11,017 bases of DNA, from NCBI GenBank assembly GCA_031276375.1, contig JAISNE010000019.1, positions 1 to 11,017 of the forward strand. Direction: 5' to 3'. Made by a program: the position numbers and the translations under genes. Shown piece after piece: positions 3,028-7,164 of this stretch. The number at the start of each line of letters is the position of its first letter. The stretch's first letter is position 1. The DNA is from Accumulibacter sp. (GTDB lineage: Bacteria > Pseudomonadota > Gammaproteobacteria > Burkholderiales > Rhodocyclaceae). Under the pieces are notes generated by a model. The model made no database searches. It worked only from the letters and a program-made list of their open reading frames with translations, and had not been told where the DNA came from.

Positions 3028-7164
<4,137 letters not shown>

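What the first reader, a model, noticed from the sequence alone, without database searches (positions are those of the whole stretch)
3028..3030. In-frame amber codon replaces a conserved lysine near the end of essential rpoB
The frame before it is normal RpoB through QEMLTV; the codon is TAG where beta subunits have Lys; then 48 further conserved codons run in the same frame to a TGA at 2881. An essential protein should not lose its C-terminal clamp tail, so the options are: (a) base-call or consensus error; (b) readthrough or a suppressor tRNA inserting an amino acid; (c) a genuinely shortened beta subunit, perhaps with a second rpoB copy elsewhere. Conservation of the tail after the stop argues against long-standing truncation. 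I consider (a) most likely, and (b) the exciting alternative.
Basis: partly seen in the sequence, partly recalled or inferred. Interest (0 to 1): 0.85.

Follow-up and report, generated by a model that had tools for sequence, protein, structure and literature searches.

The report
Probable sequence error in rpoB
A fragmentary draft genome shows a stop signal near the end of an essential gene, and the evidence points to a local fault in the draft sequence rather than to a bacterium with an unusual genetic code.

Summary
Minus-strand codon 3030-3028 is TAG inside rpoB. Counting the TAG codon, the gene has the usual 1427 codons, and Lys fills that place in 120 of 120 listed nearest proteins. The held genome (2.3 Mb, 451 contigs, 75% complete) has one rpoB. 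The TAG does not stand alone. Over 1073 base columns invariant in 20 or more relatives (rpoB 749, rpoC 324) the window has three private bases, all within 35 nt starting at the TAG. None of 29 distinct relatives has three such first- or second-position bases in the compared end of rpoB. Recoding fails its tests: an intact RF1 gene is present, TAG closes 94 of 418 coding-like frames, and no CTA-anticodon tRNA was found, though only 16 tRNA genes are held. A scan of 141 contigs showed one other gene broken by a stop: fusA, also TAG at a conserved Lys, about 7.3 kb from rpoB by the order in relatives. Its surroundings are only mildly odd. I judge local consensus or assembly error most likely (0.75). 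Two AAG-to-TAG lesions in one operon keep amber suppression alive at 0.12. Raw reads would settle it.

The parts
3031..7164 (-). rpoB reading frame before the stop, 1378 codons from ATG
   Evidence: translation; only rpoB match in the held genome; aligned with 120 relatives
3028..3030 (-). in-frame TAG where relatives have Lys (E. coli K1294 by offset)
2884..3027 (-). remaining 48 codons of rpoB in the same frame; two more private changes at codons +8 and +11
2881..2883 (-). TGA, the usual rpoB stop position
2996..3030 (-). 35-nt stretch that holds all three private bases
3..2774 (-). rpoC, first 924 codons, no internal stop; 0 departures from 391 near-invariant columns

Best explanation
The TAG is not a feature of the living organism's rpoB but a local fault of the draft genome. 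The consensus over about 35 nt of the contig carries wrong bases, most likely because it rests on few or poor reads or on a mixture of strains. The real gene then has Lys there and a full-length 1427-residue beta subunit. Shown: the TAG, the conserved tail, and the clustering of the private changes. Inferred: that reads would show other bases, and that the genome is a metagenome assembly.
For: In 749 rpoB and 324 rpoC base columns invariant in 20 or more of up to 30 loci (29 distinct relatives; up to 25 loci for rpoC) there are exactly three private window bases, all in codons 0, +8 and +11 from the TAG. Control: over codons -80 to +48, none of 29 distinct relatives has three private first- or second-position bases; the most is two. 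Three random hits would span this little about 8 times in 10,000 (simulation over a length of 2184 nt that I chose). At protein level 3 of 40 invariant columns depart from the TAG onward against 2 of 818 before it; p = 0.0009, or 0.011 without the TAG itself. With the other relatives, rpoC has 0 of 391 and rpoB before the TAG 1 of 411 near-invariant columns departing. Two of the three changes are A-to-T and one A-to-C, not the C-to-T or G-to-A transitions that commonly make amber codons (inference). The draft is fragmentary: 451 contigs, 75% complete. In 86 of 98 relatives the tail was found, and in none is it cut off at this codon.
Against: No reads or coverage could be examined. If nonsense errors were scattered evenly, two recognised cases would imply about 2.8e-4 errors per base, high for a finished short-read assembly. 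Both lesions are AAG to TAG, a class expected for 9% of random nonsense changes, so two of two has a chance of about 0.8%, counted after the fact. The surroundings of the fusA TAG are not a clear error patch: its C-terminal half has 22 private bases against 3 in the N-terminal half, but five relatives treated the same way have 5 to 47 in the C half, and third positions are hit more often per column (8 of 103) than first and second (14 of 620), which looks more like divergence than base-call error.
Confidence: 0.75

Rival explanations
1. The TAG is real and read through: a suppressor tRNA (for example an altered Lys, Gln or Tyr tRNA) inserts an amino acid at UAG in part of the events, so that rpoB and fusA still give full-length protein.
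For: Two essential genes, rpoB and fusA, have TAG at a conserved Lys, and among the 37 candidates of the scan I recognised no gene interrupted by TAA or TGA (judged by eye). Both tails stay conserved behind the stop. No second canonical EF-G and no second rpoB are held.
Against: An intact RF1 gene; TAG closes 94 of 418 coding-like frames and 32 of 267 ends of non-overlapping coding segments; no CTA-anticodon tRNA among the 16 found, though none for Lys was found either; the three private changes cluster at the rpoB TAG, which suppression does not explain; the two TAGs lie about 7.3 kb apart by the order in relatives, and no other interruption was recognised in about 652 kb of non-N sequence; no unusual RNA fold behind the TAG (z -1.30).
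Confidence: 0.12
2. The TAG is real and ends the protein: beta lacks its last 49 residues in this strain, and the tail is starting to decay, which explains the two Ser substitutions.
For: Two further invariant residues are changed just behind the TAG.
Against: The last 37 codons of the tail carry no private change at invariant columns; no relative is cut off there (0 of 86); the segment is conserved in the 77 loci read, and 43 distinct RNA polymerase beta sequences with solved structures match it; fusA would lose its last 149 codons at the same time, which I do not know any bacterium to tolerate (recalled).
Confidence: 0.06
3. The TAG is real in a minority or defective lineage, or the contig is a chimera of strains, and the consensus took the wrong variant. 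The bulk population has an intact rpoB.
For: The fusA C-terminal half diverges more than its N-terminal half: C/N ratio 1.15-1.48 against the five nearest proteins, where pairs of relatives have a median of 0.46 and a 95% point of 0.89.
Against: The protein relatives were picked by likeness over residues 300-548, and against five relatives fetched as DNA the excess in the C half holds for two of five only (L272 and L274; counts). A lineage without working rpoB cannot persist (recalled). rpoC, rplL, rplA, rplK and nusG show no departures from near-invariant columns.
Confidence: 0.07

Closest known systems
In-frame stop codons in prokaryotic genes (Belinky et al. 2021, PMC7918605; abstract and passages read)
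   Same: A conserved gene is interrupted by a stop while its flanks look constrained.
   Different: Those authors demanded the same stop in two or more genomes to rule out sequencing error. Here I found it in one genome only.
Stop-codon reassignment in bacteria (screen by Shulgina and Eddy 2021, PMC8629427; passages read)
   Same: A stop codon sits at conserved positions of essential genes.
   Different: Its introduction says all changes known in bacteria before that study reassign UGA. Here TAG is used as an ordinary stop, an RF1 gene is present, and two such codons were recognised.
Amber suppressor strains of E. coli (recalled, no call)
   Same: Would allow essential genes with TAG alongside RF1 and TAG stops.
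   Different: No suppressor tRNA was found in the incomplete tRNA set of this draft.

Membership tests
UAG reassigned to an amino acid | RF1 lost or altered | tested here: not met
   prfA on C231, 529.6 bits against a cut-off of 423.25, no stops inside
UAG reassigned to an amino acid | TAG no longer used to end genes | tested here: not met
   TAG at 94 of 418 coding-like frame ends in 141 contigs; 32 of 267 in the stricter set; these counts were not cleared of the rpoB and fusA cases
UAG reassigned to an amino acid | TAG at conserved positions of many genes | tested here: not met
   2 interrupted genes recognised by eye among 37 candidates in 141 of 451 contigs, scan recall 0.66 in simulation; 59 ABC_tran matches, rpoC and three tRNA synthetase genes without internal stops
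Amber suppression | tRNA with CTA anticodon or other UAG reader | tested here: inconclusive
   16 tRNA genes over cut-off, none CTA, none for Lys; the genome is 75% complete
Conserved programmed read-through | same stop in orthologues | tested here: not met
   Lys in 120 of 120 listed proteins and in 29 distinct relatives by DNA; no cut-off at this codon in 86 of 86 relatives with the tail
Consensus or assembly error | other wrong-looking bases close by, none further away | tested here: met
   3 private bases in 35 nt, none in the rest of 1073 invariant columns; control
Consensus or assembly error | reads disagree with the consensus | not testable with these tools
   no reads held
Second rpoB copy | another rpoB in the genome | tested here: not met
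   one match in the held 2.3 Mb; about a quarter of the genome is missing

The most novel reading that the evidence does not exclude
A betaproteobacterium carries a natural amber suppressor and has begun to place UAG at lysine positions of its essential str-operon genes rpoB and fusA while still using UAG as a stop elsewhere: an early, ambiguous stage of UAG capture in bacteria.
Probability: 0.08. Interest if true: 0.88.

Novelty: not a real feature. Interest (0 to 1): 0.2.

Why it matters
If it is an error, it is a useful warning: a nonsense codon in a draft genome should be read together with the private changes around it. Here the cluster in 35 nt tells more than the stop alone. If the TAGs in rpoB and fusA were real, they would show a bacterium in the middle of capturing UAG as a sense codon. 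The passages I read of the 2021 screen describe all changes known in bacteria before it as UGA reassignments (PMC8629427).

Tried and rejected
Second rpoB copy: none in the held genome. Genus-wide shortening of beta: rejected. 86 of 98 relatives have the tail and none is cut off at this codon; of the 12 without a tail hit, 11 have no rpoB match at all and one (G036) ends at its contig end. Structure-driven read-through: the RNA behind the TAG folds little better than shuffles (z -1.30, 19 of 200 shuffles at least as good). General poor quality of the contig: not supported, since the other window genes tested keep their near-invariant residues apart from one conservative change each in rpoB and rplJ. 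Paper search for rpoB amber, suppressor and truncation terms: no paper held at least 4 of 5 terms. Paper search for premature stops in metagenome assemblies: three papers in the listing, none opened. A DNA search of plasmids gave rpoB matches of other organisms only and was not used further. In the interruption scan 35 of 37 candidates were set aside by eye as neighbouring genes in one frame or non-coding frames; they were not checked by homology, and frameshifts were not scanned. One search compared loci in mixed orientation and is superseded. One search used a wrong stretch of L083 and is not relied on. One search failed on a file name. The fusA relatives are the best listed hits, not a random set. 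An earlier count said 17 tRNAs; the right number is 16.

Full report
What is there. On the minus strand the window carries tRNA-Trp, secE, nusG, rplK, rplA, rplJ, rplL, rpoB and the first 924 codons of rpoC (gene names by recognition of the translations; rpoC also by family search). rpoB starts at ATG 7164, runs 1378 codons, meets TAG at 3030-3028, and goes on in the same frame for 48 codons to TGA 2883-2881. With the TAG codon the total is 1427 codons, the length of most of the 120 listed nearest proteins. The residue is Lys in 120 of 120 of them and AAG or AAA in 30 of 30 loci of relatives, of which 29 are distinct. It matches E. coli K1294 by the offset of the tail (1295-1340).

Where it comes from. 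The window is the whole of contig C36 of a draft genome of 2,295,312 bases in 451 contigs, 75.34% complete and 1.06% contaminated; that it is a metagenome assembly is inferred. The nearest named relatives are Accumulibacter and Propionivibrio entries. No close copy of the same species was seen: the best listed RpoB hit is 96% identical over residues 1120-1386, and apart from the genome's own protein the best listed EF-G hit is 94% over the region searched.

The stop does not stand alone. Across 749 rpoB base columns invariant in 20 to 30 loci and 324 such rpoC columns in 20 to 25 loci, the window has three private bases. All three lie in codons 0, +8 and +11 from the TAG, within 35 nt: A to T (Lys to stop), A to T (Thr to Ser) and A to C (Tyr to Ser). 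The Thr and the Tyr are each invariant in 120 of 120 proteins. As a control I treated each relative in the same way: over codons -80 to +48 none of 29 distinct relatives has three private bases at first or second codon positions; the most is two, and three relatives (L100, L102, L111) have two to four private bases in all. In a simulation three random hits span so little with probability about 0.0008. On the protein level 3 of 40 invariant columns depart from the TAG onward against 2 of 818 before it (Fisher p = 0.0009, or 0.011 without the TAG). Other proteins in that alignment also have private departures: counting columns invariant in all others, the window has 5, most relatives 0 to 2, a few 3 to 6, and one outlier (P0011) 74. 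The number is therefore not unique; the tight cluster is what stands out. P0011 apart, the 8 other proteins with three or more have theirs spread over at least 200 columns.

Is TAG recoded? I read 141 of 451 contigs (715,854 bases, of which 63,496 are N). Frames that look coding end in TGA 261, TAG 94 and TAA 63 times; some of these are chance frames. A stricter set of 302 non-overlapping coding segments, 130,380 codons, ends in TGA 202, TAA 33 and TAG 32 times. 37 stops had coding-like sequence on both sides; by eye two of them interrupt one gene, rpoB and, on contig C66, fusA. The scan finds 66% of stops placed at random in coding segments. RF1 is present without internal stops on C231. Of 16 tRNA genes over the cut-off none has a CTA anticodon; since no Lys tRNA is among them either, the set is plainly incomplete. 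ABC transporter domains (59 matches), three class I synthetase genes and rpoC have no internal stops.

The second case. fusA of this genome reads ...REYIPAVD, TAG, GLQDAVKSG..., with Lys in 117 and Arg in 2 of 119 listed relatives at that place. C66 holds rpsG, fusA and the start of tuf (by recognition). In relatives fusA lies on the same contig about 7.3 kb from the rpoB tail (for example G010:C193), so the two lesions are probably close neighbours in the genome. fusA is mildly odd in its C-terminal half: 11 of 269 strongly conserved columns, the TAG included, depart after residue 352 and 0 of 248 before, and 22 private bases lie in the C half against 3 in the N half, judged against five relatives. 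The same count for the five relatives gives 5, 23, 19, 47 and 36 in the C half and 4, 23, 10, 49 and 43 in the N half, so the window is skewed but its C half is not extreme in number. Of its 22 private C-half bases 14 are at first and second positions, a larger share than in four of the five relatives and a smaller one than in L272 (4 of 5). The C/N divergence ratio is 1.15-1.48 against the five nearest proteins, with a median of 0.46 for pairs of relatives; against the five DNA relatives it exceeds 1 per residue for two of five (counts). A chimera of strains or real divergence may contribute.

Judgement. Both broken genes are essential (recalled), and neither has a second copy in the held sequence. 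A recoding or suppressor explanation predicts normal flanks and a spread over the genome; an error or chimera explanation predicts local clustering, which rpoB shows clearly and fusA weakly. Against error, both lesions are AAG to TAG. Random nonsense gives TAG 53% of the time and AAG-to-TAG 9% of the time in this codon usage, so two of two is a mild oddity noticed after the fact. I put local error at 0.75, a strain mixture or defective variant at 0.07, suppression at 0.12 and true shortening at 0.06. No reads were available, so the decisive test was not done.

Literature. Belinky et al. 2021 (PMC7918605, abstract and passages) required the same in-frame stop in two or more genomes to exclude sequencing error; this case does not meet that demand in what I searched. 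Shulgina and Eddy 2021 (PMC8629427, passages) state that all changes known in bacteria before their study reassign UGA; they attribute some false stop inferences to pseudogenes (in yeasts) and to contamination.

Noticed in passing
L196 (G000:C66) 2433-2435, + strand: fusA (EF-G) is also interrupted by TAG at a conserved Lys, with 148 further codons in frame; no second canonical EF-G is held.
   Followed up: yes
L196 (G000:C66) 789-2882: The C-terminal half of fusA has 22 private bases against five relatives, the N-terminal half 3; the relatives' own C-half counts run from 5 to 47. Chimera, recombination or relaxed constraint; unexplained.
   Followed up: partly
G007, G019, G023, G027, G029, G030, G035, G040, G043, G055, G068: 11 of 98 relatives, some listed as 92-100% complete, show no rpoB match at all; withheld or missing stretches are my guess.
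   Followed up: partly
G000, whole genome: Only 16 tRNA genes over cut-off in a genome rated 75% complete, none for Lys; tRNA regions seem to be lost in the assembly.
   Followed up: partly
window 7165-7188, - strand: The rpoB frame is open upstream of the ATG to a GTG at 7188, eight codons before it; most listed relatives have the length (1427) that fits the ATG.
   Followed up: no
window 2996-3030, - strand: One changed base completes a short inverted match (TCGGAC and GTCCGA) around the SDD codons. Seen by eye, may be chance.
   Followed up: no
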